From Methylobacter sp. (lineage in GTDB: Bacteria; Pseudomonadota; Gammaproteobacteria; Methylococcales; Methylomonadaceae): a stretch of DNA of 34,643 nt. Shown here one piece after another: positions 2,716 through 22,980 of the stretch. The notes under the pieces are model-generated. The model was not told where the DNA came from and searched no databases. It saw nothing but the letters and a program-made list of their open reading frames with translations. The stretch spans positions 1 through 34,643 of the forward strand of contig JAUXTH010000201.1 in NCBI GenBank assembly GCA_030679035.1. Reading direction: 5' to 3'. The first letter of the stretch is position 1, and each line of letters begins with the position of its first letter. Both the position numbers and the translations under genes were made by a program.

Positions 2716-3483
2716 TCATGATGAGCCTAGCATAGTGCTGGATGGGCTTATCTTAGCCTGCCAACCTGTTGCAAGCGGTGAGACCGGTATGATTTGCGTT
2801 TCACCGCCCGTCGCAGCTAAGCTGAGAAGAGGAATGGCTGCCAAAACAGGCATGCTGGCGACCAGAGATTCCCAGGCGTGAGGGAAAATATCCGTTCCGA
2901 GATGAGGCCGTCCGATGTGTAAAATGCTGTCTTCTACTGCGCCGGCGGCCAACACCAGAGCGCAGGCGAAAGCCGGCTGACCCTGACCGGGGGCTAGGTA
3001 TTTTGGCCAGTTTTCATCGTAGCAGACCAGCAGCAATTCACCCCCAAGACAAGTCAGTTGACACCAGGCCTCCAGCAAAGCCATGGCAAAGGTGTCACAA
3101 CCAGCCGCCAAGGCGCTGGTAGGCTGTTGGCATTGTTGGGTGATACTCCAATAACCGGCTGCTGTATTCTGGACGGAATTGTGGAAAACGCTGGGGGAAA
3201 TGATCCCTGCGGGTTTGACCAGTTCGGTGCAAAGAAGGTCGGTGGTTTGGATTTCACCGGCTACGCTGGCGAACACCGATGGAAGTGCTTCGGGTGAGCG
3301 TTGTGCTTGTCTATAAGCCACTGTCGCAGCGCTAAACGCCATTTGCGTCGCCTGGCTGGTGCGGCGGCGCAACAGGGGCGGGATCGTATCGCGGTCGATG
3401 TCGAAGGCAGGGAAGGGGAGGCTGATCCGAAATTCGGGATCTGGGGCGCAGGCGCCAAAGCCCAGCAGACTCATGCATTCCAT
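2716..3483 (-). CDS. Chain-length-factor-like truncated beta-ketoacyl synthase (ApeC-like), copy 1
   Basis: About 255 residues, matching the N-terminal-half ketoacyl-synthase proteins (ketoacyl-synt_2 type) that pair with the KS in aryl polyene clusters. The protein lacks the C-terminal thiolase half with the two catalytic His residues. At the nucleophile position the aligned segment reads LAAGCDTF, so the residue matching the KS Cys is Gly and the Cys is shifted by one; it is probably not a condensing enzyme itself. It would form a heterodimer with the KS encoded directly upstream and set chain length. The start is an ATG whose A is shared with the KS stop (TGATG), giving translational coupling. 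A second copy at 23733-24446 is clearly related in layout but diverged. Confidence 0.72.
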   Translation of the reverse strand: MECMSLLGFGACAPDPEFRISLPFPAFDIDRDTIPPLLRRRTSQATQMAFSAATVAYRQAQRSPEALPSVFASVAGEIQTTDLLCTELVKPAGIISPSVFHNSVQNTAAGYWSITQQCQQPTSALAAGCDTFAMALLEAWCQLTCLGGELLLVCYDENWPKYLAPGQGQPAFACALVLAAGAVEDSILHIGRPHLGTDIFPHAWESLVASMPVLAAIPLLSLAATGGETQIIPVSPLATGWQAKISPSSTMLGSS

Positions 3484-4685
3484 CAAGCCACCTCCAGTAA
3501 TACGCTGGCGTTGTTGCCGCCAAAGCCGAAGGAATTGCTTAATACAAGTTTAGGCGCGCACTCCAAACGCGGCGTGGCGATGACCGGACAGGGGCAGTTC
3601 GGATCGGCTTGTTCCAAACCACAGGTGCCCGGAAGGAAACCCCGTTCCAGAGCCAGCAGACTGACTACAGCCTCCACCGCTCCGGCTGCGCCTAAGGTGT
3701 GGCCGAGCAGGCCTTTCACCCCGCTGCACGGAGGTGGGTTTGGGAATAGATTGTTTATGGCCTTGGCATCGGCCTGGTCGTTCAGTATGCTGGCGGTGGC
3801 GTGCAGGTTGATGTAATCGACATCGCCCACCTCTCGATCCGCCAGACGCAAAGCTTGGGTCATAGCCAAGACCGCTCCCGTGCCTTCCGGGTGCGGGGCG
3901 CTCATGTGATGTGCGTCGGAGGATTCTCCTACTGCCAGAAGCCGTGGACGGGCGGTGTTGTCCGCGCTTTGGCGTTCCAGTAACAACAGGGCTGCTCCCT
4001 CACCGATATTGATACCCCGGCGGTTGATATCCATGGGGCGGCAAGCTTCGGGTGAGATCAATTGCAAACTGTGGAAGCCGCGCAAGGTCAATCGGCACAA
4101 GCTGTCCACGCCGGCGACCAAAACCGCATCGCAAAAGTCGGACATGATCAATCTTTGTGCCGCTCCCAAGGCTTTGGCGCTGGAAGAGCAGGCGGTTGAA
4201 ATTCCGTAGCAAGGGCCTTGCAATTCCAGTTCGCGTTGGAGAAATTCGGCGGTGGCCTGGGCCGTTTGGATTTGCATAAAATGAAAATCGCTCGGCATGA
4301 TCCCGTCACTCAGGAAATGGGCATAAGCATTCTCGGAATCATAGATTCCCGAGGTGCTGGTGCCTAACACCAGACCTACTCGCAAGGCTCCATAATTCGC
4401 TATTGCCCGTTCCACATCGGAGCGGAACTCGCCTTGGTTAAGCGCCTTAAGAGCCAGTCTTGCGTTGCGACAGTCATATGCCTTAAGGCTCTGGCGGATA
4501 TTCGGCAAAGGTGATGTGACCTCACCCACCACGGTTTTGAACGGAATATCGAATAAGCGTAAAGGTTGCAGGCAGCTTCGGTTTGCGATCAGGCTGTTAT
4601 ACAAAGCTTCCACATCCTCCCCGGCGGCGCTGACGCACTGGTAGGCTGTGACGGCGACAGGCGGTATTTGCGGATGCTTGGTCAT
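3483..4685 (-). CDS. 3-oxoacyl-ACP synthase (ApeO-like KS), copy 1
   Basis: A complete condensing enzyme of about 400 residues in the FabF/KAS-II fold, with the nucleophile Cys at about residue 166 in STACSSSAKA, the first His in NLHATAS and the second in KGLLGHTLGAAGA. It would condense malonyl-ACP with a growing acyl chain. The frame can be extended to 4718, but the start at 4685 overlaps the stop of the exporter gene as ATGA, typical of coupled translation, so I prefer it. The adjacent CLF-like gene is the obvious partner. It is a paralogue of the KS at 27056-28255: both carry a 'Y-[DN]-C-R-N' motif near residue 70 and the same ACSSSA/TCSSSA active-site block. Confidence 0.88.
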   Translation of the reverse strand: MTKHPQIPPVAVTAYQCVSAAGEDVEALYNSLIANRSCLQPLRLFDIPFKTVVGEVTSPLPNIRQSLKAYDCRNARLALKALNQGEFRSDVERAIANYGALRVGLVLGTSTSGIYDSENAYAHFLSDGIMPSDFHFMQIQTAQATAEFLQRELELQGPCYGISTACSSSAKALGAAQRLIMSDFCDAVLVAGVDSLCRLTLRGFHSLQLISPEACRPMDINRRGINIGEGAALLLLERQSADNTARPRLLAVGESSDAHHMSAPHPEGTGAVLAMTQALRLADREVGDVDYINLHATASILNDQADAKAINNLFPNPPPCSGVKGLLGHTLGAAGAVEAVVSLLALERGFLPGTCGLEQADPNCPCPVIATPRLECAPKLVLSNSFGFGGNNASVLLEVA

Positions 4686-7006
4686 TTCAGGCTTGGCTTT
4701 TGGATCAGCAGCGGGCATAGCAGGAATCCCAAGGTAACTCCCAGGCTCACGGACAGCGCCAGGATTGGTAAAGTCGGTGTTTTGCCCAGCCCCAAAGCGC
4801 CAAACGAAGCCAAGGTGGTCAGGGTGGACGAGGCGAGGGCGTGGTAGGTGATGTCAGAATCCCGGCCGCGATTATCCATGAAGAATATACCGTAATCAAC
4901 GCACAGGGAAACCGATAGCAGTAGGCCGATGATATGGAGGAAACTCACTTCTTCCTTCATCAGCGCCCAGATAGCGAAAATGAATAGCACGGAGGCGACC
5001 GAGGGCAGTAAGGTCAACAGCACCTTGCGGATGTCGCGTTGCTGCAGCCAAATGAACAGTCCCATGACCGCGATGCCGATAGCCAACATAAGCAAAGACC
5101 TGTCCCGGTATAACGAGGCTAAGCGATCCAGCTGGTCTTTTTGGCTGAAGTAACGTGTTCCTTCCAAGCCAGCCAAACCTTCGGTCAATTTTTGGGGATC
5201 GTGATCGCCCAGCCAGAGTGTTAAAGCCACGCCTTTTTGGCCCTCGATCATCTGTCCGCTCAGGATATGGCGCACCGGTGAGGCCAGAACGGCTTCAGGC
5301 TTCAGCGACAGTGCGGCAGGTGGTAACAGCTTGCCGAGCTTATCCACCGAAAGCTCGGCTTTGCCCAAGGCTGCCCGCCAAGCATCCTGAAATTGCGGGG
5401 TCAGTGCCTGTGCGTAAACTTTGGCGTTTTCGTTCTGCAAGTCTTGTGAAGCCAGCCAGGGAAACAGTCCGTGATATTCGCTTAAGATCCCGGCCTGCTT
5501 CAATTGCTTCAAACGGCGCTCAGCCGCTTCGGTGCGCCTAAGCGCGGTTTCCAAATCATCAGCCTGAACCAACACAAAACGCGCCGGTTCGATACTGGCA
5601 AAATGGCTGCGGACGGTTTCGTCCTGCTGCTTTAACTGATCCATGTTCATCGCCAGTTTTTGCATGTCGTCCATCCAGCGGATCTGCGGCAAAGCCAGTC
5701 CGGCCAGCATGATGCAGATAGCAAACAAACCCAGCAACAGCTTGCGGCGACGGGCGCAGAAATCGACCCAGGCGGCGATACCGGGCAAATGGGCGACATG
5801 CAGGGAGGAGTGGGCAAGCAAGGCGGGCAGCACCCAGCGGGTCAGTCCTAATGAGGCTGCGATACTGGCCAAGGCGAATATGGCGATTTGCTCGAAGCCT
5901 GGAAATCCGGTGAGACCCAAGGCCGCATAGCCGATGACGGTGGTCAGGCCGCCCATGAGCAGGCTGGGCCATAGCAGCCGGGCGGCATCCAATGGAGAGT
6001 TGCGGTGCTTTGCGCAATGCACCATCACATGGATAGGATAATCGGTGCAGATGCCGATCAAGCTGCCCCCTAGGGCCAGGGTCAAACTATGGACAGTGCC
6101 GAACGCTAAAGCCGTCACCAAAGCGCCAACGACAAAGGAAGCGATCTGAACCATCATCACCCAATGCAGTGCGGAAAAAGATTGGAACAGCAGCAAAAAT
6201 ACAACCGCCACAGCCACGCTGGACACCACCGAAACCAAGGTGACGTCCTGGCTGATCTCGCCGTGGGCCGCCACGCTGAAAACCGGCACCCCGGCCATGG
6301 ACAGTCGGAATGCGTTCCCTGTCGCTTGGTTCAGGGTATCAAAGCTTGCGCGGATGGCGGCTTGCAGGCGCGAATGCAGATCCGAATCCAAGGCGGCGTA
6401 TCGGCTTTGCAAAATCAACGCGCCGCCGCTATCCAATTCGGCTTGGTGTTCGAACTGGCCTTTCAAGTCCTTGAAGCCGTTCAGGGATAACAGCAAAGGA
6501 TCTTGTTTGGCGATGGCTTTGATGAACCCGCCTTGGGGCGAGAGCAAAGCCTGTTTGAGACCCTCGGCCCGGCTGGTCAAGCTGGCGGGGTTGAACAGTC
6601 CGCGCCCTTCCTCCTCGGGATTCAGGCTGAACAGGCGGGCATGATAGGGGGCGTAAGAACGGACGGCATCGATCCACTCGCGGGGAGGCTCGTTGGCGGG
6701 CCATACTTGTTCCACGCCTTCGATCTGCGCCAGCTGCGAGACCAGCTTGGCGCTGAATGCGTCTAGGGAAACCGGGTTTTGCGCTGGATTGGCCTCGTTT
6801 GGATTAGTTGTTTTTTCTACCACCAGCATATAGCGCCGCGACAGTTCGCCCGATTGCAACAGCCCGGACAGCAGCTTTGAATCTTCGTTGTCGCTGGCGG
6901 TAAAAAAGGCGTTCAGGTCGGATTCGATGCGGATTTGCCAAACGGTTACCGCCAACAGCAAGGGGAACAAAACTAAAAACCAGCGCTTTCTCCAGATGAA
7001 AGACAC
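4682..7006 (-). CDS. MMPL/RND-family exporter of the APE cluster
   Basis: A 774-residue inner-membrane protein. A short N-terminal cytoplasmic stub and first transmembrane segment (residues 8-24) are followed by a large periplasmic domain, a block of five closely spaced helices (about 255-400), a second periplasmic domain and a second block of helices to the C-terminus. This two-fold layout is that of MMPL/RND lipid exporters (COG4258 type in APE clusters). The likely cargo is the lipid-linked polyene, passed to the LolA-like protein encoded just upstream. The start is a GTG 4 bases after the lolA-like stop, with GGAG in front of it, and the end overlaps the KS gene by ATGA. No break in the reading frame is seen. 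Confidence 0.88.
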   Translation of the reverse strand: MSFIWRKRWFLVLFPLLLAVTVWQIRIESDLNAFFTASDNEDSKLLSGLLQSGELSRRYMLVVEKTTNPNEANPAQNPVSLDAFSAKLVSQLAQIEGVEQVWPANEPPREWIDAVRSYAPYHARLFSLNPEEEGRGLFNPASLTSRAEGLKQALLSPQGGFIKAIAKQDPLLLSLNGFKDLKGQFEHQAELDSGGALILQSRYAALDSDLHSRLQAAIRASFDTLNQATGNAFRLSMAGVPVFSVAAHGEISQDVTLVSVVSSVAVAVVFLLLFQSFSALHWVMMVQIASFVVGALVTALAFGTVHSLTLALGGSLIGICTDYPIHVMVHCAKHRNSPLDAARLLWPSLLMGGLTTVIGYAALGLTGFPGFEQIAIFALASIAASLGLTRWVLPALLAHSSLHVAHLPGIAAWVDFCARRRKLLLGLFAICIMLAGLALPQIRWMDDMQKLAMNMDQLKQQDETVRSHFASIEPARFVLVQADDLETALRRTEAAERRLKQLKQAGILSEYHGLFPWLASQDLQNENAKVYAQALTPQFQDAWRAALGKAELSVDKLGKLLPPAALSLKPEAVLASPVRHILSGQMIEGQKGVALTLWLGDHDPQKLTEGLAGLEGTRYFSQKDQLDRLASLYRDRSLLMLAIGIAVMGLFIWLQQRDIRKVLLTLLPSVASVLFIFAIWALMKEEVSFLHIIGLLLSVSLCVDYGIFFMDNRGRDSDITYHALASSTLTTLASFGALGLGKTPTLPILALSVSLGVTLGFLLCPLLIQKPSLK

Positions 7007-7010
7007 CTAA

Positions 7011-7721
7011 TTAATCTCCCATGGCTTCGAGCAGCAAGCGTTGGATGACATTATCCAATTGCTGACCTTCGGCAGTTTTCACCATGCGGTATTCGGTGGA
7101 TTCGCCATCCGGTTGACGGATTAAAACCTGTTGTTTACGTCCATCTTCGTCCCCCGAAATTTCGACAGTCGCCGCGTCCTCATTGCTGAGTTCAGGCTTA
7201 GGCGTCAAGCGCAAGGTCCAGCGTTTGCCGTGCTGTTCCGGGACAAAATCATAGCTCGATTTCAATTCATCGGCATGTCCCTGCAAAATGGCGATGAATA
7301 CCGTGATCAGATCCGATGCTTGCCCCGATTGGCCTAGGGGGGCGGTGTGGCGCTGCTGTTGTTCGGGATCCCAGTAATACATTCGGCCTTCGGCGATAGC
7401 CATGATAACCCGCGTAGGTTGCAGTTGCTGCTTGACCAAGCTGCCGTCCGCGCCGGACAGCATGTTACCCTGGCCTTGCCAAGGGGAAGAGGCTAATTCC
7501 AGTTTGCGGATTTCCTCGTAATGGAACTCGGCTGATCCGCTTTGCCGGATGCGTCCGAGCAAAGCTTGCAATTCGGATTCATCGCAAAATCCCGGCATAG
7601 GCAATAACGCTAACAATAAGCAGAAGCCGGGCATCACAATAGAACGCAGATGACGCTGATAGTTATGATTAAGTAAGATTTTTTTTGAACACTCTGCGTT
7701 CATCATATTTATCAGCGTCAT
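7011..7721 (-). CDS. LolA-like outer-membrane lipoprotein carrier of the APE cluster
   Basis: The core protein (from about residue 30) has a hydrophobic signal segment LLLALLPMPGFC followed by about 190 residues with the LolA-type pattern 'FHYEEIRKLELASSPWQGQGNM...MYYWDPEQQQRHTAPL', known for periplasmic carriers of lipids in APE clusters. It probably accepts the polyene lipid from the MMPL exporter encoded next to it. The start is uncertain. The 5' end of the open frame, roughly 7638-7721, is palindromic repeat DNA. Starting there gives a signal peptide with basic residues (KK, R, R), while starting at the downstream ATG at 7634 gives one with none. No convincing ribosome binding site is visible for any of the starts. 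Confidence 0.75.
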   Translation of the reverse strand: MTLINMMNAECSKKILLNHNYQRHLRSIVMPGFCLLLALLPMPGFCDESELQALLGRIRQSGSAEFHYEEIRKLELASSPWQGQGNMLSGADGSLVKQQLQPTRVIMAIAEGRMYYWDPEQQQRHTAPLGQSGQASDLITVFIAILQGHADELKSSYDFVPEQHGKRWTLRLTPKPELSNEDAATVEISGDEDGRKQQVLIRQPDGESTEYRMVKTAEGQQLDNVIQRLLLEAMGD

Positions 7722-7753: not shown

Positions 7754-8365
7754 CTATCCCTTAAACACTTTGTGGCCGTGCCTTGCCATGAAAGTGAAGG
7801 TCTCCAGCATAGGGGGGATTTCCAGATCAGGGAAACGTCGATGGCGGTAGAACCATTCCCCAACGCCAAGCAAGCCCATCAGCACATAAACAAGCACGCC
7901 GGTATAAACCGCCCATACCTTTTGTCCTGCAAGGGCCGGCAGCAAGGCGCAGACCGGCACATTGATGGCGAAGAATAGCGTCCAGGCCCACGTCACTTCC
8001 CGCAGGTATTCTGCAATGCCGGGAATGAACTCCGGATATTGCAAGCGCACTAGACGTTCGCATAGGGAAGAGGGGGTCCATAGCGTATGCCCGAACAGAA
8101 CCGTCAGCCACAAATACGCGAGTGAGGGAACCAGCCAGATAAAATAGGCGTTGGTGAAATAGGCACCCGTTAGCAATAAGGCGGCGAACAGAAAACTGCC
8201 GAAGCGTAAGGCCATCGTCTTCGAGTTAAGGCCTCGCCATAGGGTCAGCGCGGCAAACACCAGTAACTCCAAGTTGGCAAAGCCAAGTCCTGCTAAATAA
8301 GAGCTGAGGAATGGATAGGCGATCAGAATAAAGGCGATGCTGACTGCCTTAATTATGGTGCCCAT
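7754..8365 (-). CDS. COG4648-type membrane protein (ApeG-like), copy 1
   Basis: A 203-residue polytopic membrane protein with about six hydrophobic segments, and the conserved stretch TPSSLCERLVRLQYPEFIPG followed by an aromatic helix with TWAWTLFFAIN. This family is found almost only in APE and related clusters; its function is unknown. The start lies 2 bases after the ACP stop, so the pair is co-translated. A paralogue sits at 21757-22305 (shared YPFL, ERL.RL..P and VLMGLLG/A-E features). Two copies are unusual, since typical APE clusters carry one. Confidence 0.75.
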   Translation of the reverse strand: MGTIIKAVSIAFILIAYPFLSSYLAGLGFANLELLVFAALTLWRGLNSKTMALRFGSFLFAALLLTGAYFTNAYFIWLVPSLAYLWLTVLFGHTLWTPSSLCERLVRLQYPEFIPGIAEYLREVTWAWTLFFAINVPVCALLPALAGQKVWAVYTGVLVYVLMGLLGVGEWFYRHRRFPDLEIPPMLETFTFMARHGHKVFKG

Positions 8366-8690: not shown

Positions 8691-8774
8691 AAAACACTTG
8701 AATTGGGATGCCGGGAATGTCAGAATCGTTTTGAATTCAAGTCATTTACTATTTCAATCCCAACAGGCCGATAC

Positions 8775-9287
8775 GTGCGTTTTATTCTGGCTTTCAAGGT
8801 CATACTTTTTAGCGTGCTCGTCCCCGGTGCAGTGACCCTGTACTTTCCCTATTCGCTGCTTTCCCGCGCTGACGATAACTTGCAAGTGGCGAGTTTAGTC
8901 CTATCCATTCCCGCCTGCGCCTGCCTCCTGGTCGGGACGGCCATTTACCTTCGTTGTGCCTGGGACTTTGCGATTGATGGATTGGGGACGCCCGCCCCCA
9001 TAGATCCTCCGAAAAAGTTGGTCGTGACCGGACTCTATCGCTGGATCCGCAATCCTATGTACCAAGGCGTACTGCTTATTCTTCTGGGTGAGTGCTTGTT
9101 GTTCCCAGACCGTGGCCTTTTAGTTTATACAGCCTCGTTCGCTCTCGTTTTTCATGTCTTCGTCGTCTTTTACGAGGAACCGATTCTCCGTAGCCGGTTT
9201 GGCGTGTCTTACAGTGATTATTGCCGCAAAGTTCCACGCTGGAATTTTGCTTTTCGATCTTTCACCATGGATTCTGCCAAATTCTAG
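8775..9287 (+). CDS. Isoprenylcysteine carboxyl methyltransferase/PEMT-like membrane methyltransferase
   Basis: About 170 residues with several transmembrane helices and the signature of the ICMT/phospholipid methyltransferase superfamily: GLYRWIRNPMYQG, then an EEP...L...FG..Y..Y...VPRW tail (the Glu and the Arg-containing C-terminus bind S-adenosylmethionine in this family). It would methylate a membrane-embedded substrate, possibly a carboxylate or amine of the polyene lipid; the substrate is not shown. The open frame extends upstream to a TTG at 8703, but the GTG at 8775 gives a cleaner membrane-protein start, and neither has a strong ribosome binding site. The gene is divergent from the ACP operon and heads the plus-strand pyrrole group, with a gap of about 110 bases before the carrier protein. 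Confidence 0.7.
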   Translation: MRFILAFKVILFSVLVPGAVTLYFPYSLLSRADDNLQVASLVLSIPACACLLVGTAIYLRCAWDFAIDGLGTPAPIDPPKKLVVTGLYRWIRNPMYQGVLLILLGECLLFPDRGLLVYTASFALVFHVFVVFYEEPILRSRFGVSYSDYCRKVPRWNFAFRSFTMDSAKF

Positions 9288-9396: not shown

Positions 9397-9639
9397 ATGA
9401 AAGAAAAACTAAAAACATTCATTTTCTCCGAACTTATTTACCATGAAGACCCTGCGTCTTTTGGCGATGACGCCGACCTTTTGGAGGCGGGACTGGACAG
9501 CCTGGGCATCATGCGCCTTATCATGTTTGCCGAGAAGGAATTCGGCGTGACCTTGCCGGATACGGAGATCGAACCGGACAATGTCAACAGCTTGAACGCG
9601 CTCGAAAAATGGATAAAGCAAGCAGGGGCGGGGCAGTGA
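9397..9639 (+). CDS. Free-standing peptidyl/acyl carrier protein of the pyrrole module
   Basis: An 80-residue carrier protein with the phosphopantetheine Ser at about residue 35 in LLEAGLDSLGIMRL. The DSLG motif and 'FGVTLPDTEI' third-helix region resemble NRPS-associated carrier proteins more than the DSID-type ACPs elsewhere in the cluster. In the PltL/RedO/Bmp1 logic it would be loaded with L-proline by the adenylation enzyme at 11146 and oxidised to pyrrolyl-S-carrier by the dehydrogenase at 12576. The preferred ATG start is at 9397. A TATAAT hexamer at 9349-9354 may be part of its promoter, but no good -35 is visible. The condensation-like gene begins at its stop codon. Confidence 0.85.
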   Translation: MKEKLKTFIFSELIYHEDPASFGDDADLLEAGLDSLGIMRLIMFAEKEFGVTLPDTEIEPDNVNSLNALEKWIKQAGAGQ

Positions 9640-10910
9640 AAAAAGCCTCCCCTCTGCTGTTCAATCCTGCCGACTATTTCACTTTCGTACTCGATCAGGA
9701 AATTCGTAATATCGGCCATCCGGGCGGCTATTGCGGCTTTGCGCTGGAACTGGCCGAACAGCCTGACCTGGAGCACCTGCAACAGCGACTGGATCTTTTG
9801 GTGGAAAATTTCCCTATCGCTTCGGCTCAGATCGAGCGTCAGGGTAAACGCTACGCCTGGGTGCCGACCGGTCAGAGAATCATGCTGGAACGCCATCAAT
9901 GCCGGCAGGGCGAACAGGCCCAGCATATACAGTTGGCAATTCTTAATCGCCAGGAATCCTTGCCGCTAACCTTGCATTGGATTGCCTCCGGAGCCGGGGG
10001 GACTTTGCTGCTGAATTGGAACCATCCGCTGCTGGATGCCCGTGGTGTAAAGATAGTGTTGGATTTTCTCGCCTCAGACCGGCCCGAAAGCTTTAAGGAA
10101 TCGCCCTCTTTAGTTGAGGCCAAGCTGGCGCAATGGAGTTTCTGGAAAAAATGTCGTCTGTTCGTCAAGGCTAAACTGCATAACAGAGAAGTCAACAGCC
10201 TGGATAGCTGCTTGCCCACGCAAGAGGAGCAGGGGTCGCAAACCTTGCAACTCAAAGTGCGGAACTTTAGCGAGGAAGAGTCCCGGCAGATCGCCCGACT
10301 GGCCCAGCAGCATACCGGGGTGGCCGGGCGAACTCTGTATTATCTCGGTTGCTTCATGCGAGCCATGGAACAGGTGGGGCCTCCCGTCGCAAAGGCCGGT
10401 TATTGCATACCTTATGCCTTCAACTTGCGTCGCCAGAACGCCCCCACACCGGTGTTCGGCAACCATGTGGGCTGTTTGTTCGCCCGCGCCGCCCGCGATC
10501 AAGTGCAGGACCGGCAAGGTTTGTTCGAGCATTTGCTGTCGCAGTATAAGCAGGTCGTGCGGGATGAGTTGGATCTGGCCTACTTGCCGCTGATGTGGCT
10601 GGGTCAGTGGTTATCTCCGGCCCGTTACGCCAAAATTTTGCGCAAACAACACAGCGGCGGCGAATTGAGTTCACTGTGGTTTTCCGACATCGGCGACCTG
10701 TCTTGGGGAAAGAAAGGCTTTCTCGGCAGCCCCGTTACCGGCATGTCCCTGCTGTGCTGGATGACCTTGCCTCCGGGTTTAGCCCTGTTGGCCGGGCAGT
10801 TGGACGGTCGGCTAACGCTGTCTTACAACTACCTATCACCGGCAGTGGACGAGGCTTGGCTGGATGCGGTCATGGCGCAAATGGACGTTGAATTGCTGGC
10901 CGAGGTTTAG
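9636..10910 (+). CDS. Stand-alone condensation-domain-like acyltransferase
   Basis: About 424 residues with the two-lobed fold pattern of the NRPS condensation/PapA/WES acyltransferase superfamily. The core motif is LNWNHPLLDARG at residues 126-137: compared with the classical HHxxxDG the first His is Asn and the final Gly is Ala, but the catalytic second His (130) and the structural Asp (134) are kept. A GTG at 9636 overlaps the carrier-protein stop (GTGA) and is preferred; an ATG at 9609 is also open. Being coupled to the carrier protein, it probably uses pyrrolyl-S-carrier as donor and passes the acyl group to an ACP, an amine or a hydroxyl of the polyene, as the acyltransferase CloN2 does for the pyrrole of clorobiocin (by analogy only). 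Confidence 0.75.
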   Translation: MKKASPLLFNPADYFTFVLDQEIRNIGHPGGYCGFALELAEQPDLEHLQQRLDLLVENFPIASAQIERQGKRYAWVPTGQRIMLERHQCRQGEQAQHIQLAILNRQESLPLTLHWIASGAGGTLLLNWNHPLLDARGVKIVLDFLASDRPESFKESPSLVEAKLAQWSFWKKCRLFVKAKLHNREVNSLDSCLPTQEEQGSQTLQLKVRNFSEEESRQIARLAQQHTGVAGRTLYYLGCFMRAMEQVGPPVAKAGYCIPYAFNLRRQNAPTPVFGNHVGCLFARAARDQVQDRQGLFEHLLSQYKQVVRDELDLAYLPLMWLGQWLSPARYAKILRKQHSGGELSSLWFSDIGDLSWGKKGFLGSPVTGMSLLCWMTLPPGLALLAGQLDGRLTLSYNYLSPAVDEAWLDAVMAQMDVELLAEV

Positions 10911-10948
10911 GATATGGTCGGCAATAACTTCCCGAAACTTGGTCTCAT

Positions 10949-11118
10949 TGTTCCCATGCTCAGTGTCACGGCCATTAAGTTGAGCGCTGTAGGAGCGGGC
11001 CATGCTCGCGATGAAGGGGCTAGAATTCTGCATTCACTGAACAAATATCGCGGGCGCGGCCCGCTCCTACAGCGTCATTGTGCGTAACTTAATGGCAGTG
11101 ATGCTCAGCGTGGGAACC
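10949..11118. repeat. Palindromic repeat, TAGGAGCGGGCC family copy 1
   Basis: Arms 10986-11001 and 11058-11073 are perfect 16-base inverted copies (GCTGTAGGAGCGGGCC). Pairing continues outward with gaps (CATTAAGTT near 10975 and its complement near 11090; GTTCCCA at 10949 and TGGGAAC near 11112). The second copy of the family is at 24537-24620. It separates the condensation-like gene from the prolyl ligase. Confidence 0.8.
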
Positions 11119-11145
11119 ATAAAGTTGCTGACCGAGGCCTAATCG

Positions 11146-12579
11146 ATGTTGCTTAAACCTTTTCTACACCAATGTCGGCAACAGCCCGAGGCAGTCGCCT
11201 TGGTGGAAAGTGATCGTTACCTGTCCTACGGCGATTTGCTGGCGCGTGCGCAATCCGTTGCGGCCGGTTTGCAAGCACTGGGCGTTCAGCCCGGTCAGCC
11301 TGTCGCCGTTCATCTTGATCGCGGCATTGATGTAGTCATCGCGATATTCGGCGCGCTGCTGGCTGGTGCTTGTTATGTTCCCCTCGACTTGAAAAACCCA
11401 AAGCCGAGGCTGGCCTTTATTGTCAGAGATGCAAAGGTTCATGCGGTGCTGGGTTTGGGTGATGCGCCCGCTGGGTTGGATGCAAGCTTGTGGCTAGACA
11501 TCAATGCTTGTTCCGAGGCGACTCCAAAGCCGGTCGAACTTCCAGCCGATTCTATGGCCGCCATTCTTTACACCTCAGGCTCCACTGGTCAACCTCGCGG
11601 TGTGGCCTTAAGCCATGGCGCGGTGGCGTCTTTCGCGTTATGGGCCGCAGACTTGGTCGCATTGCAAGACAACGACCGCATCGCCAGCAGCACGCCGTTT
11701 TTTTTCGACCTGTCCACTTTCGATCTCTATGCCGTGTTGGGGCGCGGAGCCAGTTTGTATTTCGTCCCATCCGCATTGATCTTATCCCCGTCCCGCCTCA
11801 GCGCATGGCTAAAGGAACAGGCCATCAGCGGCTGGTACACTGTTCCTTCGCTGTTGGCTTTCCTGGCGTATAAGGGCAATTTGGCGCAAACTCCTTTGGA
11901 GTCCTTGCGGTTTTTGCTCTTCGCCGGAGAAGTGTTTCCCACTCCCGCCTTGATCGATTTAGCCGCCAAGCTGCCCCGGACTGCGTTGTACAATTTTTTC
12001 GGCCCCACTGAAACCAATGTGTGTTGTTATTGGCCGGTGGAGCGCGAGCGCTTGGTAGCTGATGAAAACATCCCCATCGGTCTGCCTGCTGTGGGTTGCG
12101 AATTTCACATTGATGCCGTAACCGGCGAGCTCTGGGTGCGAGGCTCCAGTCTTGCCAGCGGCTATTGGAATCAAGGCCGATTGCTGCCGTTTTTGAACGA
12201 GGAAGGCTGGTATCCCACCGGCGACCGCGTGAGTCTGGTCGATGGCGAATGCCGCTTCCATGGCAGACTCGGGCGCATGCTCAAATGCTCCGGTTACCGG
12301 GTCGAGCCGGCGGAGATCGAAGCCGCCGTCAATGCCATGGCTGGGGTAAGAGATTGTGCCGTGGTCGGTATCGACGACCCTGCCGCCGGGCAGCGTCCGG
12401 CTTTGGCATTAGTCTTGGAATCCCCTGCAACCCCTGCCGAAATCCGCACTGCTCTGTTCCGGCAATTGCCGTCCTACATGCAGCCTAGCCGCTGTGTCGC
12501 GCTGGAGGAACTGCCCCGCCTGCCCAACGGCAAGCTGGATTACAACCAAGTGCGTACCTTGCTGGAGGCGCAACAATGA
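11146..12579 (+). CDS. NRPS adenylation enzyme, predicted L-proline:carrier-protein ligase (PltF/RedM-like)
   Basis: A 477-residue stand-alone adenylation enzyme. Motif A3 is LYTSGSTGQPRG (141-152), A4 FFFDLSTFD (185-193), A5 FFGPTET (284-290), and the A10 Lys is in NGKLDY (463). Placing residues at the ten specificity positions of GrsA gives D188, L189, F192, Y231, L258, A260, F284, V292, C293, K463, i.e. DLFYLAFVCK. From memory the prolyl ligases of pyoluteorin, prodiginine and aminocoumarin pathways read DLLYLALVCK, so eight of ten match. It should form prolyl-AMP and load the carrier protein at 9397. Its stop overlaps the dehydrogenase start (ATGA), the pairing expected for pyrrole-2-carboxylate formation. 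No methyltransferase or carrier domain is fused. Confidence 0.88.
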   Translation: MLLKPFLHQCRQQPEAVALVESDRYLSYGDLLARAQSVAAGLQALGVQPGQPVAVHLDRGIDVVIAIFGALLAGACYVPLDLKNPKPRLAFIVRDAKVHAVLGLGDAPAGLDASLWLDINACSEATPKPVELPADSMAAILYTSGSTGQPRGVALSHGAVASFALWAADLVALQDNDRIASSTPFFFDLSTFDLYAVLGRGASLYFVPSALILSPSRLSAWLKEQAISGWYTVPSLLAFLAYKGNLAQTPLESLRFLLFAGEVFPTPALIDLAAKLPRTALYNFFGPTETNVCCYWPVERERLVADENIPIGLPAVGCEFHIDAVTGELWVRGSSLASGYWNQGRLLPFLNEEGWYPTGDRVSLVDGECRFHGRLGRMLKCSGYRVEPAEIEAAVNAMAGVRDCAVVGIDDPAAGQRPALALVLESPATPAEIRTALFRQLPSYMQPSRCVALEELPRLPNGKLDYNQVRTLLEAQQ

Positions 12580-13691
12580 ATTTGGAATTTGCCGATTTCC
12601 CTCCTTACGCCAAGCCTAACAGCGAGGCCATAATCCAATCCCGTTTCCGCGCTGTCGCAGATAAAGGTGTTTTGCGCCATGCGCTACCCGAGCGCTTTGG
12701 GGGTTATGGCGATGACTTTGCCAGCCTGTACCAAAGCCACCGCCGCTTGGGTGAGGCCAGCCGCGATCCCGGCCTGATGTTGATGATAAATGCCCATTTG
12801 TGGGGGGCAGTATTCCCTATCTTGCTGTACGGAGACGAGCAGCAACGGCAACAGTTTTTGCCGCCGCTGCTGGCAGGACGTTGGTTGGGCGGACATGCCA
12901 TCACCGAGCCGTCTTGCGGTTCCGATGTGCAGGCTATGGCCAGCTGCGCCGAGCGGAGTGGCGAAGGGTTCATCTTGAACGGCGAAAAACGCTATATCAC
13001 CAATGTCCCTCTGGCAGATTGGCTGGTGGTTTATGCCAAGCTGGAGGGGCGAATTACCGCTTTCCTGGTCTCCCGCAATGACCTTGGTTGCGAATTCAGC
13101 CGTGAGAAGGCTTTGGATGCTTGCTTGGGAAGCGTCACCGGAAGCATTACTTTGGAGGATTGCCGACTCGATACCACTCGTCTGTTGGGCAAGGCCGGGG
13201 CAGGGGCGCAGATGATACAGAAAGCCTTGGAGTATGAACGCGCCTTCGTGTTTGCTGGCATTGCCGGGATCATGGAATGGCAGTTGGCGGAAGTCGTCCG
13301 TCATAGCCGGGAAAGGCGTTCCGGCGGCGTTCACCTAGGCCACCATCAGGCCATCGGTCATCGCATCGCGGACATGAAGATGCGGCTGGATACCATCGAC
13401 TTGTGGCTTAGGGAGTGCGCCAGGCTTTGCGATGCCGGTCAAAGGCTGACTCTAGCCTCCGCGCAAACCAAGCTCTATGCCGCCGAGGCATTTTTGCAGT
13501 CGAGCCTGGATGCAGTCCAGATCATCGGCGCGGCCGCATTGGAGCAGGGCAGTGCGATGGCCGACTTGGTGCAAGACGCTCTGGCCGGACGGCTGTTTTC
13601 CGGCAGTTCGGAAGTGCAGAAGAACCTTATCGCCGCTCTGCTGGGTACCGGCGAAGCTTATCGGGGTAGCGCCCCGTCCGGTAAGCAATGA
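12576..13691 (+). CDS. Acyl-CoA-dehydrogenase-like prolyl-carrier oxidase (PltE/RedW/Bmp3-like)
   Basis: A 371-residue flavoprotein of the acyl-CoA dehydrogenase family, with the signature ITEPSCGSDV at about 109-118 and the FAD-binding C-terminal block ending in FSGSSEVQKNL. The usual catalytic Glu of the C-terminal YEGT site is missing (Ser instead), but a Glu at residue 221 in YERAF matches the place of the base in isovaleryl-CoA dehydrogenase. From the family and the coupled prolyl ligase I infer four-electron oxidation of prolyl-S-carrier to pyrrolyl-2-carboxyl-S-carrier. The ATG overlaps the ligase stop by ATGA. The alternative, an ordinary fatty acyl-CoA dehydrogenase, is less likely in this context. 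Confidence 0.85.
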   Translation: MNLEFADFPPYAKPNSEAIIQSRFRAVADKGVLRHALPERFGGYGDDFASLYQSHRRLGEASRDPGLMLMINAHLWGAVFPILLYGDEQQRQQFLPPLLAGRWLGGHAITEPSCGSDVQAMASCAERSGEGFILNGEKRYITNVPLADWLVVYAKLEGRITAFLVSRNDLGCEFSREKALDACLGSVTGSITLEDCRLDTTRLLGKAGAGAQMIQKALEYERAFVFAGIAGIMEWQLAEVVRHSRERRSGGVHLGHHQAIGHRIADMKMRLDTIDLWLRECARLCDAGQRLTLASAQTKLYAAEAFLQSSLDAVQIIGAAALEQGSAMADLVQDALAGRLFSGSSEVQKNLIAALLGTGEAYRGSAPSGKQ

Positions 13692-13722: not shown

Positions 13723-13874
13723 TCCGTTCGTCCTGAGCCTAGTCGAAGGGGGAGCGGGATTTTGTGCTAATTCCCAAGCTCCAGCTTGGGAATTCAGTGC
13801 GAGAAGCTCCAGCTTCCCGTCTCACGAAGCTGGAGCTTCGTTGTCTGGGTTCCCAAGCTGGAGCTTGGGAACCA
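13723..13874. repeat. Composite repeat: CAAGCTCCAGCTTG palindromes plus TCGTCCTGAGC...GTCGAAGGG element
   Basis: Four versions of the AGCTCCAGCTT/AAGCTGGAGCTT unit lie at 13771-13792, about 13804-13817, 13825-13840 and 13849-13872; the first and last are near-perfect palindromes. Just upstream, 13723-13752 resembles the widespread dispersed sequence CCGTTCGTCCTGAGC...GTCGAAGGG. It fills the gap between the dehydrogenase and deacetylase genes and adds about 42 meaningless codons to the deacetylase open frame. Confidence 0.8.
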
Positions 13875-13889
13875 GCGTATGATTTTAAG

Positions 13890-14723
13890 ATGAAGTCTGC
13901 CTATTTCAATCGCCCTTGGCGACCAACCCTTATGATCAAGGGTTCTTTTCTGCTCATCGTAGCGTCGGTAGTCGCGGTAGTTGTCCGTCCCGATATTTGG
14001 CCCTGGGCAGCGATTGTTGTTGTCATCGATCATGCACTGTTGACCATTGCCGGACTTTGGCCCCGCTGTACGCTATTGGGATCAAACTGGAACGCCCTGC
14101 CCGAAGCTTCCGCCTCAAGAGGCGAAATTGCCATCACTATCGACGACGGCCCCGACCCCGAAGTTACTCCAACAGTTCTCGACTTACTCGACCGCCACGA
14201 CGTGAAAGCCACTTTCTTCTGCATTGGCGAGAAAGCGAGACGCCACCCGGACTTGTGCCGTGAGATCGCAGACCGGGGCCATGCGGTGGAAAACCACAGC
14301 ATGCACCATAGACACCATTTTTCCTTTCTGTTACTTGGAGGGTATTTTTCCGAACTGGCAGCCGCCCAGGAGACCTTGGCCTCCATTACCGGCATCCGCC
14401 CGAGCTTTTTCCGTGCTCCGGCGGGTTTGCGCAACCCTTTATTAGATCCGGTGCTTAGTCGACTAGGCCTGCAACTGGCTAGTTGGACTCGCAGGGGCTT
14501 CGACACCGCAGAGAAAGATCCCCAGATAGTGTTGGCAAAACTGTTGGATGGCCTGAAAGCCGGCGACATACTGCTGCTACATGACGGTAATGCCGCAAGG
14601 ACTGCCACGGGCGTACCCGTCATCCTCGAAGTGCTGCCGTCCTTGCTGGATGCGGTCGCCGCCGCGAAGTTGCGCCCGGTTACTTTGCGTGAGGCGCTTC
14701 CGGTATCGGTCCGTGAATCGTGA
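13890..14723 (+). CDS. Membrane-anchored polysaccharide deacetylase-family (NodB) enzyme
   Basis: 277 residues from the chosen ATG. Two N-terminal hydrophobic segments (about 17-33 and 38-56) are followed by a NodB homology domain: ITIDDGPDP with the metal/catalytic Asp pair at 85-86, the metal His pair in HSMHH (136 and 140), RAPAG (175-179) and the late ILLLHD motif. All expected catalytic residues are present, so hydrolysis of an N-acetyl group is likely. The substrate could be an acetylated sugar head group of the polyene lipid, made by the glycosyltransferase at 20656; this is inference. The open frame starts further upstream (13764), but that part is repeat DNA, so 13890 is preferred. 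Confidence 0.85.
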   Translation: MKSAYFNRPWRPTLMIKGSFLLIVASVVAVVVRPDIWPWAAIVVVIDHALLTIAGLWPRCTLLGSNWNALPEASASRGEIAITIDDGPDPEVTPTVLDLLDRHDVKATFFCIGEKARRHPDLCREIADRGHAVENHSMHHRHHFSFLLLGGYFSELAAAQETLASITGIRPSFFRAPAGLRNPLLDPVLSRLGLQLASWTRRGFDTAEKDPQIVLAKLLDGLKAGDILLLHDGNAARTATGVPVILEVLPSLLDAVAAAKLRPVTLREALPVSVRES

Positions 14724-16212: not shown

Positions 16213-17529
16213 TTAAAATAGCAACTCATCCATAAGATGCGCCCCAGCTCTAGCGGGGTTGAGATCGAGTTTTGCATCACGCACCAAGCGATGGAAGTTC
16301 TCCGAGCGTTCGGACATCGACGAGGCAGCCAGCATCAGCTCCAACTCCACTGGAGGCACTTGGCGCATGAAGCGTTGCACCAGTTTTGCATCGACGCCGT
16401 CGCCACCGAATTCTCCTAATGCCAGCGAGCGCGAAAAGCCGTAAAATTGCCGAATGCGGTTCTCGCAAAGTTGGGCATAGCGGGCGCGGTAGGCGGGGTT
16501 TTTAAGGGATTCTGACACCGCCAACGCGGTCATCGATGCGTTGTAAAAAGCATTCAGTACCCCGTGGGAATAAATAGGATCGACGAAGGATGCGGCATCG
16601 CCTATGCAATAAAAATTTTCCCCGCACAGCTTAGTGGAGTAGTAGGAATAATCCGGCCTTTCGCAGAAGGAACCGTCCACATACTCGGCATTTTTCAGTA
16701 AGCGGTCGAGGTAGGGCGCGGACTTCAAGGTGTTCAGGAAGAACCGTTCGCGGCCCTCCTTGTCCATGGCGCGGGCGCGGTCGGTGTTGATGACTAGGCC
16801 GACGCTGGTCAGCTTGCGCATCGCGATATGCCAGATCCAGCCGTCTTCGAAGGAAGTGACAAACGTGACGGGGCGGACTTTTCCGATGTCTTCTGCCGGA
16901 TAGCTGCGGCCATCGGCGGCGACAAAACGGGAATTTTTAAAGTATCCCCAGAGCGATAGAAACCTCATGCGGGAGTCTATCAGCTGCTTGGATTTGAACT
17001 GTCCGGCAAGGACTGCCGACGGCCCGCTGGCGTCAACCACGTAGCGGCAAGCAATGCTGCCCACATGCGTATCACCCCCGCGCCGATCCAAATAACTTAC
17101 TTTGGGGAAGTCCGAGCCTAATTCGGCTTCTTGGACGGCGACTTGCTGAAAAACCTGCACACTCAGGCTTTCGGCGTGTTTCAGCAGCAGTTGGTCGAAA
17201 ACATCTCTTTCCACATGCAAGGCGGGGCGGGTAAAGCCGAATTCGGAGAAGGCGATACGGCTGATTGTGTCGTTCCAAACCGTGATGCCTCCGGCTTTGG
17301 CGACGAAGCCTTCTTGTTCGAGCAGCGGCGACACCCCTGTTTGGTCGGCGTATTTCCAAAAATGCGGGATTAGGCTTTCACCGACCTGGGGGCGTGGATG
17401 GGAGGCTTTTTCCAGTAAGACTACGTCCACGCCCTTTTTCGCCAGCAAAGCCGCAACGCTGGAACCGGCAGGGCCGCCGCCGATGACCAGGACATCGCAG
17501 TGCTTGGGGATCTCGGTATTAATCGACAT
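16213..17529 (-). CDS. Flavin-dependent halogenase-like protein 2 (degenerate WxWxIP)
   Basis: 438 residues from the preferred ATG, which has AAGG about 8 bases upstream; the open frame extends to 17601. Motifs: GGGPAG at 17-22, GESLIP at 50-55, a Lys at 78 in FVAKAGG at the place of the halogenase Lys, then WIWHIA where halogenases have WxWxIP, and FVDPIYSHG. The final Pro-to-Ala change and the altered FxDP..S.G block make halogenase activity less certain than for copies 1 and 3; a hydroxylase or oxidase is a real alternative. It is the last gene of the long minus-strand operon, separated from the TauE-like gene by a nested palindromic repeat, and may have its own promoter. Confidence 0.78.
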   Translation of the reverse strand: MSINTEIPKHCDVLVIGGGPAGSSVAALLAKKGVDVVLLEKASHPRPQVGESLIPHFWKYADQTGVSPLLEQEGFVAKAGGITVWNDTISRIAFSEFGFTRPALHVERDVFDQLLLKHAESLSVQVFQQVAVQEAELGSDFPKVSYLDRRGGDTHVGSIACRYVVDASGPSAVLAGQFKSKQLIDSRMRFLSLWGYFKNSRFVAADGRSYPAEDIGKVRPVTFVTSFEDGWIWHIAMRKLTSVGLVINTDRARAMDKEGRERFFLNTLKSAPYLDRLLKNAEYVDGSFCERPDYSYYSTKLCGENFYCIGDAASFVDPIYSHGVLNAFYNASMTALAVSESLKNPAYRARYAQLCENRIRQFYGFSRSLALGEFGGDGVDAKLVQRFMRQVPPVELELMLAASSMSERSENFHRLVRDAKLDLNPARAGAHLMDELLF

Positions 17530-17652
17530 TGTTTTGACCTTGTAGAAAGAAATGGAACTCGGCAATTGCTCCTGCATTGCTCTACCTTCTGCATAACCCA
17601 CAGGGATGTGGGGAATGCAGATATTGCAGGAGCAAATATCTGTCCATGTCGA

Positions 17653-22465: not shown

Positions 22466-22714
22466 CTAAGCTTCGTTGATTCGATAAATGACGTCCACCA
22501 CATCTTGTATGGTGCGTGCGTTTTTGAAATCTTCCGGGTTGATGCGTTTACCGACAATGTTCCGCAACCTGACCATTAGATCTACAGCATCTATGCTGTC
22601 AATATCCAAGTCTTTGTTCAAGTTGGCATTCAAATTTATGTCCTCGGGCGCTAGTTCGAACATTTCCGACATTAGCTGCCTTAGAGTGGCGTGTATTTCT
22701 TCTGGGGTTTTCAT
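22466..22714 (-). CDS. Acyl carrier protein (ApeF-like)
   Basis: An 82-residue ACP with the phosphopantetheine Ser at about residue 40 in DLDIDSIDAVDL. Its helix II and III differ from the two ApeE-like ACPs (no GGLGL motif), so it is a distinct carrier, as APE clusters normally keep two kinds. In aryl polyene assembly one ACP is thought to hold the starter or primer and the other the elongating chain; which does which here is unknown. The ATG overlaps the preceding ACP stop by ATGA. Confidence 0.9.
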   Translation of the reverse strand: MKTPEEIHATLRQLMSEMFELAPEDINLNANLNKDLDIDSIDAVDLMVRLRNIVGKRINPEDFKNARTIQDVVDVIYRINEA

Positions 22715-22980
22715 AAGATTTTTTGTTGTTGTGATACGACAAAACGGGTTAGGTTTTTAATCGAGGCGAAATAATTAAAAAGTTCAGTGGAGTCAGTATC
22801 GATGTGGATGTCATATTTTTTCTTCAAGGCCAGTCCGAGTTCTAGCGCATCAATGGAATCGAGGCCTAAGCCACCGTCAAACAATGGGGCTTCCGAGGCG
22901 ATGTCTAGTGGGCTTATTCCCTGCAACTCTAAGGTATCAATAATCAACTGCTTTAATTCGATTTCAAGGTCTTTCATAGC
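22711..22980 (-). CDS. Acyl carrier protein (ApeE-like), copy 2
   Basis: An 89-residue ACP with the attachment Ser at about 41 in GGLGLDSIDALELGL. It is the close relative of the ACP at 8368-8631. The ATG at 22980 lies inside the end of the acyltransferase gene (17-base overlap); the frame is open to 22995. It is coupled at its 3' end to the next ACP. The pair ACP-ACP followed by the COG4648 gene reproduces the E-F-G order of known APE clusters. Confidence 0.9.
   Translation of the reverse strand, partial: AMKDLEIELKQLIIDTLELQGISPLDIASEAPLFDGGLGLDSIDALELGLALKKKYDIHIDTDSTELFNYFASIKNLTRFVVSQQQKIL

What the first reader, a model, noticed from the sequence alone, without database searches (positions are those of the whole stretch)
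9397..13691. A prolyl-to-pyrrole carrier-protein module embedded in an aryl polyene cluster
Carrier protein, predicted prolyl-AMP ligase (specificity residues DLFYLAFVCK, eight of ten as recalled for PltF/RedM-type enzymes) and an acyl-CoA-dehydrogenase-like enzyme together reproduce the known route to pyrrolyl-2-carboxyl-S-carrier. I know of this module in pyoluteorin, prodiginines, aminocoumarins and bromopyrroles, but not as part of an APE-type cluster. With APE genes on both sides, the likely product is a polyene lipid carrying a pyrrole, possibly a new chemotype.
Basis: partly seen in the sequence, partly recalled or inferred. Interest (0 to 1): 0.88.

Follow-up and report, generated by a model that had tools for sequence, protein, structure and literature searches.

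The report
Proline-to-pyrrole module in methanotroph polyene cluster
Many methane-eating bacteria carry a conserved set of genes that very probably turns the amino acid proline into a pyrrole ring and passes it to a neighbouring pigment-lipid (aryl polyene) pathway, a pairing for which I found no published description and whose product is unknown.

Summary
The extra protein has a predicted NRPS-condensation fold. The flanks are aryl-polyene (APE) genes, including ApeI- and ApeP-type dehydratases, with three flavin-halogenase-like genes. Among 237 family genomes, condensation-like protein, ligase and dehydrogenase occur in 72, 70 and 73 and pairwise share 67-69. A pattern scan of 84,980 species gave 59 loci, 52 titled as methanotrophs. 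The common APE ketosynthase does not track the module; a second ketosynthase and one halogenase-like gene do. Best reading: proline is loaded, oxidised to pyrrolyl-carrier and passed by the condensation-type enzyme into an APE-type lipid pathway. Pyrrole rather than pyrroline, the transfer and any halogenation are inferred. The dehydrogenase is a deep clade that the tree could not place. Nine searches of an open-access library found no description (listed under Tried and rejected).

The parts
9397..9639 (+). free-standing carrier protein (PCP), LDSLG motif
   Evidence: PF00550 41.1 bits; directly before the condensation-like gene in 58 of 59 named loci
11146..12579 (+). stand-alone L-proline adenylating enzyme (ProA)
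   Evidence: code DLFYLAFVCK, clade sister to PigI 95/87; PF00501 241.9 bits
12576..13691 (+). prolyl-carrier dehydrogenase-type flavoenzyme (DH); catalytic Glu = E221
   Evidence: AnaB 208.5 bits, Bmp3 182.7 bits; NCBIfam PigA 261, RedW 255, next family 151; E221 in 12 of 12 rows of its clade
8703..9287 (+). PEMT-type methyltransferase-like membrane protein in front of the module
   Evidence: PF04191 47.3 bits
8368..8631 (-). acyl carrier protein of the divergent APE sub-cluster (ACP1)
   Evidence: read from the sequence, no family search run; conserved beside the module
7754..8365 (-). membrane protein, perhaps ApeG-like
   Evidence: position and conservation only; no Pfam hit; the likeness to ApeG is recalled
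7011..7721 (-). LolA-like protein, perhaps ApeL-like
   Evidence: read from the sequence and its conservation; no family search run
4682..7006 (-). MMPL/RND-type exporter, perhaps ApeM-like
   Evidence: no Pfam hit itself; its 41%-identical homologue in G145 matches PF03176
3483..4718 (-). ketosynthase KSa
   Evidence: NF006618 473 bits over cut-off 407; 46 of 52 genomes with it have the C-like gene
2716..3486 (-). CLF-type ketosynthase partner CLFa
   Evidence: PF13723 107.9 bits
936..2156 (-). flavin-dependent halogenase-like protein FADhal1
   Evidence: best PDB hit 5buk 162.6 bits, then ChlB4 and PltA; 45 of 50 genomes with it have the C-like gene
13764..14723 (+). polysaccharide-deacetylase-like protein after DH
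   Evidence: PF01522 100.4 bits; a homologue follows DH in 11 of 59 named loci
16213..17601 (-). flavin-dependent halogenase-like protein FADhal2
   Evidence: ChlB4 157 bits, searched as 16213-17523; PF04820
18848..19264 (-). hot-dog thioesterase
   Evidence: PF13279 40.1 bits
19715..21396 (-). LpxL-like acyltransferase (19715-20656) and GT2 glycosyltransferase (20656-21396), probable lipid-anchor genes
   Evidence: PF03279, PF00535
21380..21760 (-). ApeI-like dehydratase
   Evidence: PF22818 67.7 bits over cut-off 28.5
22466..22995 (-). two acyl carrier proteins
   Evidence: read from the sequence, no family search run; conserved
22964..23740 (-). PlsC-type acyltransferase
   Evidence: PF01553 77.8 bits
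23733..24563 (-). CLFb
   Evidence: PF13723 201.3 bits
24639..25871 (-). APE ketosynthase KSb
   Evidence: NF006587 693 bits over cut-off 470
25868..26596 (-). ketoreductase
   Evidence: read from the sequence, no family search run on it; conserved in synteny
26593..27096 (-). ApeP-like dehydratase
   Evidence: PF22817 69.5 bits over cut-off 27
27056..28255 (-). ketosynthase KSc
   Evidence: read from the sequence, no family search run; conserved next to FADhal3
28252..29478 (-). flavin-dependent halogenase-like protein FADhal3
   Evidence: 3nix 365 bits; PF04820
33198..34490 (+). AMP-ligase Lig2 (place of ApeH in APE clusters)
   Evidence: PF00501 68 bits; homologue beside the cluster in G115, G145, G141 and G011 and G295; in G114 and G102 it lies near KSb, far from the module

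Best explanation
ProA activates L-proline and loads it on the free-standing carrier (inferred from the specificity code). DH oxidises the carrier-bound prolyl group, most likely by four electrons to pyrrole-2-carboxyl-carrier. FADhal1 or FADhal2 may halogenate that ring. The stand-alone condensation-fold enzyme takes the pyrrolyl group from the carrier and transfers it, as an ester or amide or to another carrier, into the APE-type type II polyketide pathway encoded on both sides. The product would be an exported, membrane-anchored polyene lipid that bears a pyrrole. Shown by computation: gene identities, code, catalytic Glu, predicted condensation fold, genomic coupling. Inferred: every reaction, the acceptor and the product.
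Against: DH scores below both NCBIfam equivalog cut-offs (261 of 500; 255 of 650). It is 30-37% identical to the prolyl-type references but also 31% and 34% to two ordinary dehydrogenases. Its clade could not be placed: grouping it with ordinary acyl-CoA dehydrogenases was not rejected (p 0.136). The Glu is also present in the isovaleryl-CoA dehydrogenase control. Four-electron against two-electron oxidation cannot be read from sequence. KSb occurs without C-like in 60 of 105 genomes. DH occurs without C-like in 5 genomes and C-like without DH in 4. In 15 of 59 named loci no ligase was found in the fetched stretch, some of these cut by contig ends, others with other genes following (L089, L116). 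C-like lacks the first His of HHxxxD. The Fisher values ignore phylogeny.
Confidence: 0.58

Rival explanations
1. The pyrrolyl group is the starter unit of the polyene: KSa/CLFa (or KSb) extends pyrrolyl-carrier directly, and the condensation-like protein only shuttles it to an ACP or acts later.
For: KSa tracks the module (46 of 52 genomes with KSa have C-like), and pyoluteorin uses a pyrrolyl starter (established knowledge, recalled). KSa/CLFa lies beside the module in G145, G139 and G295.
Against: A Lig2-type ligase, in the place of the APE starter ligase, is still present near the module in G145, G141, G011 and G295, which suggests that an aryl starter remains; a condensation enzyme is not needed for KS priming.
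Confidence: 0.25
2. The dehydrogenase stops after two electrons, as AnaB does (recalled), and the carrier holds a pyrroline, not a pyrrole.
For: AnaB is the best PDB match (208.5 bits). In the wider tree the clade lies on the AnaB side of a split supported only 87/89.
Against: PigA and RedW are the best NCBIfam models and the ligase groups with PigI; the best PDB matches of the nearby FADhal1 include PltA.
Confidence: 0.15
3. Two pathways merely lie side by side: the module makes a pyrrole product of its own and the APE genes make an ordinary APE.
For: KSb occurs without C-like in 60 of 105 genomes. In G114 and G102 KSb, with Lig2 near it, lies far from the module.
Against: Adjacency to KS and export genes recurs in several genera and in one genome of another family. 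In G145, which has no ketosynthase over the KSb family cut-off, the module lies in one stretch with KSa/CLFa, exporter, GT2, PlsC, LpxL-like, ketoreductase and Lig2-type genes.
Confidence: 0.14
4. The dehydrogenase acts on another acyl carrier and the ligase loads a different imino acid.
For: The DH clade could not be separated from ordinary acyl-CoA dehydrogenases by the tree test.
Against: In 20 of 20 methanotroph ligases the positions numbered 235, 236, 239, 278, 301, 330, 331 and 517 read D, L, F, Y, A, V, C, K (numbering recalled); profile preference of DH.
Confidence: 0.06

Closest known systems
Thiotemplated prolyl-to-pyrrolyl modules (PltF/PltE/PltL, PigI/PigA/PigG, RedM/RedW/RedO, Bmp4/Bmp3/Bmp1; names partly recalled)
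   Same: free-standing carrier, stand-alone proline-type ligase, acyl-CoA-dehydrogenase-fold enzyme with the catalytic Glu (logic described in passages of PMC11177257)
   Different: oxidase in its own deep clade and below the equivalog cut-offs; a condensation-fold gene sits inside the module; the setting is an APE-type cluster
Aryl polyene clusters (E. coli ape; Table 1 in passages of PMC8253772)
   Same: KS and CLF, ketoreductase, ApeI- and ApeP-like dehydratases, ACPs, PlsC, GT2, thioesterase, exporter
   Different: extra KS/CLF pair, proline module, three halogenase-like genes; Lig2 only distantly ligase-like (68 bits)
Free-standing condensation enzymes and C domains (AzeD, SgcC5, NRPS C domains)
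   Different: 9-14% identity in the structural alignments, no Pfam match, first His of HHxxxD replaced
Pyrrolyl-carrier halogenases (PltA 5dbj; 5buk, recalled as Mpy16)
   Same: among the best PDB matches of FADhal1, with the FxxPxxSxG stretch aligned (motif name recalled)
   Different: the ten best matches, mostly entries named halogenase, lie within 38 bits of each other, so the substrate cannot be assigned

Membership tests
Thiotemplated prolyl-to-pyrrolyl module | stand-alone ligase with proline-type specificity code | tested here: met
   DLFYLAFVCK; 8 of 10 as PigI 7thn; clade sister to PigI 95/87
Thiotemplated prolyl-to-pyrrolyl module | free-standing carrier protein | tested here: met
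   PF00550 over cut-off
Thiotemplated prolyl-to-pyrrolyl module | acyl-CoA-dehydrogenase-fold oxidase with the catalytic Glu | tested here: met
   E221 aligned with the Glu of AnaB, Bmp3 and PigA; this Glu is named as the mark in passages of PMC11177257. Not specific: an isovaleryl-CoA dehydrogenase has it too
NCBIfam equivalogs PigA (NF053553) and RedW (NF045652) | score over the curated cut-off | tested here: not met
   261 of 500 and 255 of 650 bits: not filed as PigA or RedW
Known PltE/PigA/RedW clade | phylogenetic nesting of the oxidase | tested here: inconclusive
   own clade 100/100; p 0.136, 0.118 and 0.267 for the three groupings tried; PltE and RedW themselves were not in the tree
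Thiotemplated prolyl-to-pyrrolyl module | four-electron oxidation on the carrier | not testable with these tools
   needs protein mass spectrometry
Aryl polyene cluster | ApeI/ApeP-type dehydratases with KS and CLF | tested here: met
   PF22818 and PF22817 over cut-off, PF13723; NF006587 over cut-off
Aryl polyene cluster | ApeH-type aryl-acid ligase | tested here: inconclusive
   Lig2 has an AMP-binding match of 68 bits; not compared with ApeH
Condensation-domain superfamily | fold and HHxxxD motif | tested here: inconclusive
Flavin-dependent halogenase | halogenation activity | not testable with these tools
   PF04820 over cut-off in all three; motifs read by eye, names recalled

The most novel reading that the evidence does not exclude
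A methanotroph-wide family of halogenated pyrrolyl-polyene lipids, in which a free-standing condensation enzyme of an undescribed family caps an aryl-polyene glycolipid with a proline-derived halopyrrole. It would be a chemotype and an enzymatic step not yet known. The module genes are present in strains such as Methylotuvimicrobium buryatense 5G and Methylomonas sp. LW13, and at least in part in mussel-gill symbionts.
Probability: 0.3. Interest if true: 0.78.

Novelty: new variant of a known kind. Interest (0 to 1): 0.64.

Why it matters
Aryl polyenes are among the most widespread bacterial pigments, and genome surveys already report their clusters as frequent in gammaproteobacterial methanotrophs (PMC11964084, PMC12810054; passages seen), without the words pyrrole or proline in the searched main text. 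If these clusters make pyrrole-bearing polyene lipids, the plain annotation hides a distinct compound class in organisms that limit methane release. The condensation-fold family, whose window member matched no Pfam or NCBIfam model, is a specific and testable handle. Cultured strains carry the locus, so one deletion and one mass spectrum would settle much of it.

Tried and rejected
PF02797 (chalcone/stilbene-synthase type) in the own genome: no match. Profile search of the PDB with the condensation-like alignment: only chance matches, so a fold was predicted instead. Tree placement of DH: three groupings tried, none rejected, p 0.136, 0.118 and 0.267; not used as evidence either way. The ligase tree has long outgroup branches and the tool warns of them. 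One ligase that stands with a dehydrogenase and a carrier, in Pseudohalocynthiibacter, has another code, DIFFIGSMCK. The idea that the module belongs to the common APE ketosynthase was dropped: KSb is in 45 of 72 genomes with C-like and in 60 without it, and six of ten searched genomes with module genes have no match over the KSb family cut-off. Telling the halogenase's substrate from PDB scores was dropped. Replacement of DH: G118 and G011 have C-like and ligase but not the orthologous DH; both have another DH that scores best with the PigA and RedW models. In G118 that DH lies in a separate cluster with its own carrier and ligase; in G011 no such partners lie beside it, so this is only suggestive. 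Literature: nine searches of the open-access library; no title or abstract beginning in the listings describes a proline or pyrrole module in an APE cluster. Most subscription papers are not held. Five papers were seen in passages only: PMC11964084, PMC12810054, PMC11177257, PMC8253772 and PMC10880069.

Rows dropped: two DH matches of 32-34% identity (G118, G011) before the co-occurrence count. Two of 16 condensation-like rows (L038, which has a stop, and L031). Of 59 named condensation-like loci, three were not put into and five of the other 56 had a stop in the matched stretch; 44 of the remaining 51 went into the structure alignment with the window.
Full report
What is there. The window lies in a 4.79-Mb genome of 216 contigs. 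The nearest named locus by the condensation-like protein is Candidatus Methylobacter oryzae, 95% identity. Between 9397 and 13691 four genes run on the + strand: a carrier protein (PF00550); a 433-aa protein whose gene overlaps the carrier's end by 31 bases; a 477-aa adenylating enzyme; and a 371-aa acyl-CoA-dehydrogenase-fold enzyme whose gene overlaps the ligase's by four bases.

Ligase. The anchoring to gramicidin-synthetase numbering is recalled. Of 20 methanotroph ligases aligned, 13 read DLFYLALVCK; the other seven have F at the position numbered 322, and four of these also I or F at 299. PigI (PDB 7thn; the entry is titled proline ligase, the name PigI is recalled) reads DLFYIAWVCK. Ligases of four other clusters with an acyl-CoA-dehydrogenase-type gene read DLFYLALVCK or DLLYLALVCK; one further reference, from Pseudohalocynthiibacter, reads DIFFIGSMCK. 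In the tree the methanotroph ligases form one clade (100/100), sister to PigI and the Methylocystis ligase (95/87); several outgroup branches are long and the tool warns of them.

Dehydrogenase. Best solved relatives are AnaB (4irn, 208.5 bits), Bmp3 (6cxt, 182.7) and PigA (5zw0, 164.3), then ordinary enzymes from 159.8 down (the names AnaB, Bmp3 and PigA for these entries are recalled or from PMC11177257). The PigA model gives 261 bits and RedW 255, the next family 151; both are under the equivalog cut-offs of 500 and 650. A control, an isovaleryl-CoA dehydrogenase, shows no preference (acryloyl-CoA reductase 364, RedW 297, PigA 270). By plain identity there is no preference: 30-37% to eight prolyl-type references against 31% and 34% to two ordinary dehydrogenases. 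The catalytic Glu that a published comparison names as the mark of pyrrole-forming enzymes (PMC11177257, passages) is E221; it is present in 12 of 12 rows of the clade and in the eight references, but also in the isovaleryl-CoA dehydrogenase, so it is necessary rather than sufficient. The clade is deep (100/100), and the tests rejected neither a position with ordinary dehydrogenases (p 0.136) nor two other groupings (p 0.118, 0.267). PltE and RedW sequences were not in the tree.

Surroundings. On the left, on the - strand, lie an ACP, a membrane protein, a LolA-like protein, an MMPL-type exporter, KSa, CLFa, a small lipoprotein-like protein and FADhal1. On the right lie FADhal2, a thioesterase, an LpxL-like acyltransferase, GT2, an ApeI-like dehydratase, two ACPs, PlsC, CLFb, KSb, a ketoreductase, an ApeP-like dehydratase, KSc and FADhal3, and farther off Lig2 (some named from sequence only, as marked under parts). 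ApeI and ApeP Pfam models are over cut-off and KSb is over its NCBIfam cut-off. FADhal1 is nearest to 5buk (named only as a FADH2-dependent halogenase in the listing), ChlB4 and PltA (162.6, 152.2, 146.9 bits), but its ten best matches lie within 38 bits of each other. FADhal3 is nearest to 3nix (365 bits).

Distribution. In 237 genomes of the family, at the thresholds, the counts are DH 73 (two weaker matches left out), condensation-like 72, ligase 70, FADhal1 50, KSa 52, KSb 105. Condensation-like and ligase share 69 genomes, condensation-like and DH 68, DH and ligase 67 (Fisher p between 7e-48 and 6e-55, phylogeny not corrected). In the window's genus 3 of 23 genomes have DH, and the same 3 have the ligase and the condensation-like gene, which limits the effect of shared ancestry. 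FADhal1 and KSa follow the module (45 of 50 and 46 of 52 have the condensation-like gene), KSb does not (45 of 105). Exceptions: DH without condensation-like in 5 genomes, the reverse in 4, condensation-like without ligase in 3, ligase without it in 1. Condensation-like and ligase lie on one contig in 59 of the 69 shared genomes, always within 25 kb; ligase and DH on one contig in 53 of 67, within 25 kb in 51.

A scan of 84,980 species with two peptide patterns of the condensation-like protein gave 59 loci; 52 titles name methanotrophs (Methylobacter, Methylomonas, Methylotuvimicrobium, Methyloprofundus, Bathymodiolus and Gigantopelta symbionts and others) and 7 are unspecific or name another group. 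In these 59 the carrier is beside it in 58, a ligase in the fetched stretch in 44 and DH in 33; many stretches are cut by contig ends, but in L116 and L089 other genes follow instead. Of 369 genomes drawn across the class it was found in 3: the window's own, one of the same family and one of another family (G295, 1.4 Mb, 82% complete). G295 carries LpxL-like, Lig2, condensation-like, ligase, DH, PEMT, FADhal2, CLFa, KSa, exporter, LolA, GT2 and PlsC genes within 20 kb; carrier, ketoreductase, dehydratases and FADhal1 were not recognised in that stretch. It may be transfer or a mis-binned contig.

Arrangements. In one (window, Methylomonas and others) the module faces the ACP1...KSa-CLFa-FADhal1 operon. 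In another (among them Methylotuvimicrobium buryatense 5G, L122) it faces FADhal3-KSc-ApeP-like-KR-KSb. Six of ten genomes searched that carry module genes have no ketosynthase over the KSb family cut-off. In one of these, G145 (two contigs), a single stretch holds a 45%-identical ketoreductase, LpxL-like, Lig2-type, PlsC, GT2, exporter, KSa/CLFa, FADhal1, FADhal2 and the module. In another, G011, ketoreductase, LpxL-like, Lig2-type, PlsC and GT2 genes lie with the module while KSa/CLFa and exporter lie on a second contig. G141 has a similar cluster and also a KSb on another contig. So the module belongs to APE-type clusters in a broad sense, and its steadiest partners are KSa and FADhal1, not the common APE ketosynthase. 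In G114 and G102 Lig2 goes with KSb and not with the module.

Literature. [quoted passage not shown]); the words pyrrole and proline do not occur in the searched main text of either. No title or abstract beginning listed describes the combination. This covers open-access papers only.

Verdict. The enzymatic reading is well supported for ligase and carrier and probable for the oxidase. The APE link is supported, with the change that KSa/CLFa and FADhal1 are the steadier partners. The product remains unknown.

Noticed in passing
window 15053-16084: DUF4365 gene of 36% GC in a cluster of about 55% GC, seen only in the window's genome among the syntenic loci compared; looks like a recent insertion.
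   Followed up: partly
window 10947-11120: Spacer between the condensation-like gene and the ligase holds two nested inverted repeats with CTGTAGGAGCGGGC arms (REP-like). In G102 the ligase-DH spacer holds an ORF that looks like a REP-associated transposase (L048 10722-11252; recalled resemblance).
   Followed up: partly
L145 10724-15013 (G145): A second carrier / condensation / ligase cassette in the same cluster, with intact HHxxxD and a ligase without the amino-acid code.
   Followed up: partly
L158 (G295:C8): Compact version of the cluster in a 1.4-Mb genome of another gammaproteobacterial family: transfer, symbiont or mis-binning.
   Followed up: partly
L127 (Methylocystis iwaonis plasmid NZ_CP143315.1): A prodiginine-like cluster in an alphaproteobacterial methanotroph; its PigA-like enzyme scores 659.5 bits, over the PigA cut-off of 500.
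   Followed up: no
L065 (G118:C1:3699000-3718900): A second proline module (code DLLYLALVCK) with Rieske and radical-SAM genes beside it.
   Followed up: partly
window 17902-18873: TauE-like membrane protein with homologues in the clusters of G145 and G141 (44% and 43% identity); a possible member of the cluster.
   Followed up: no
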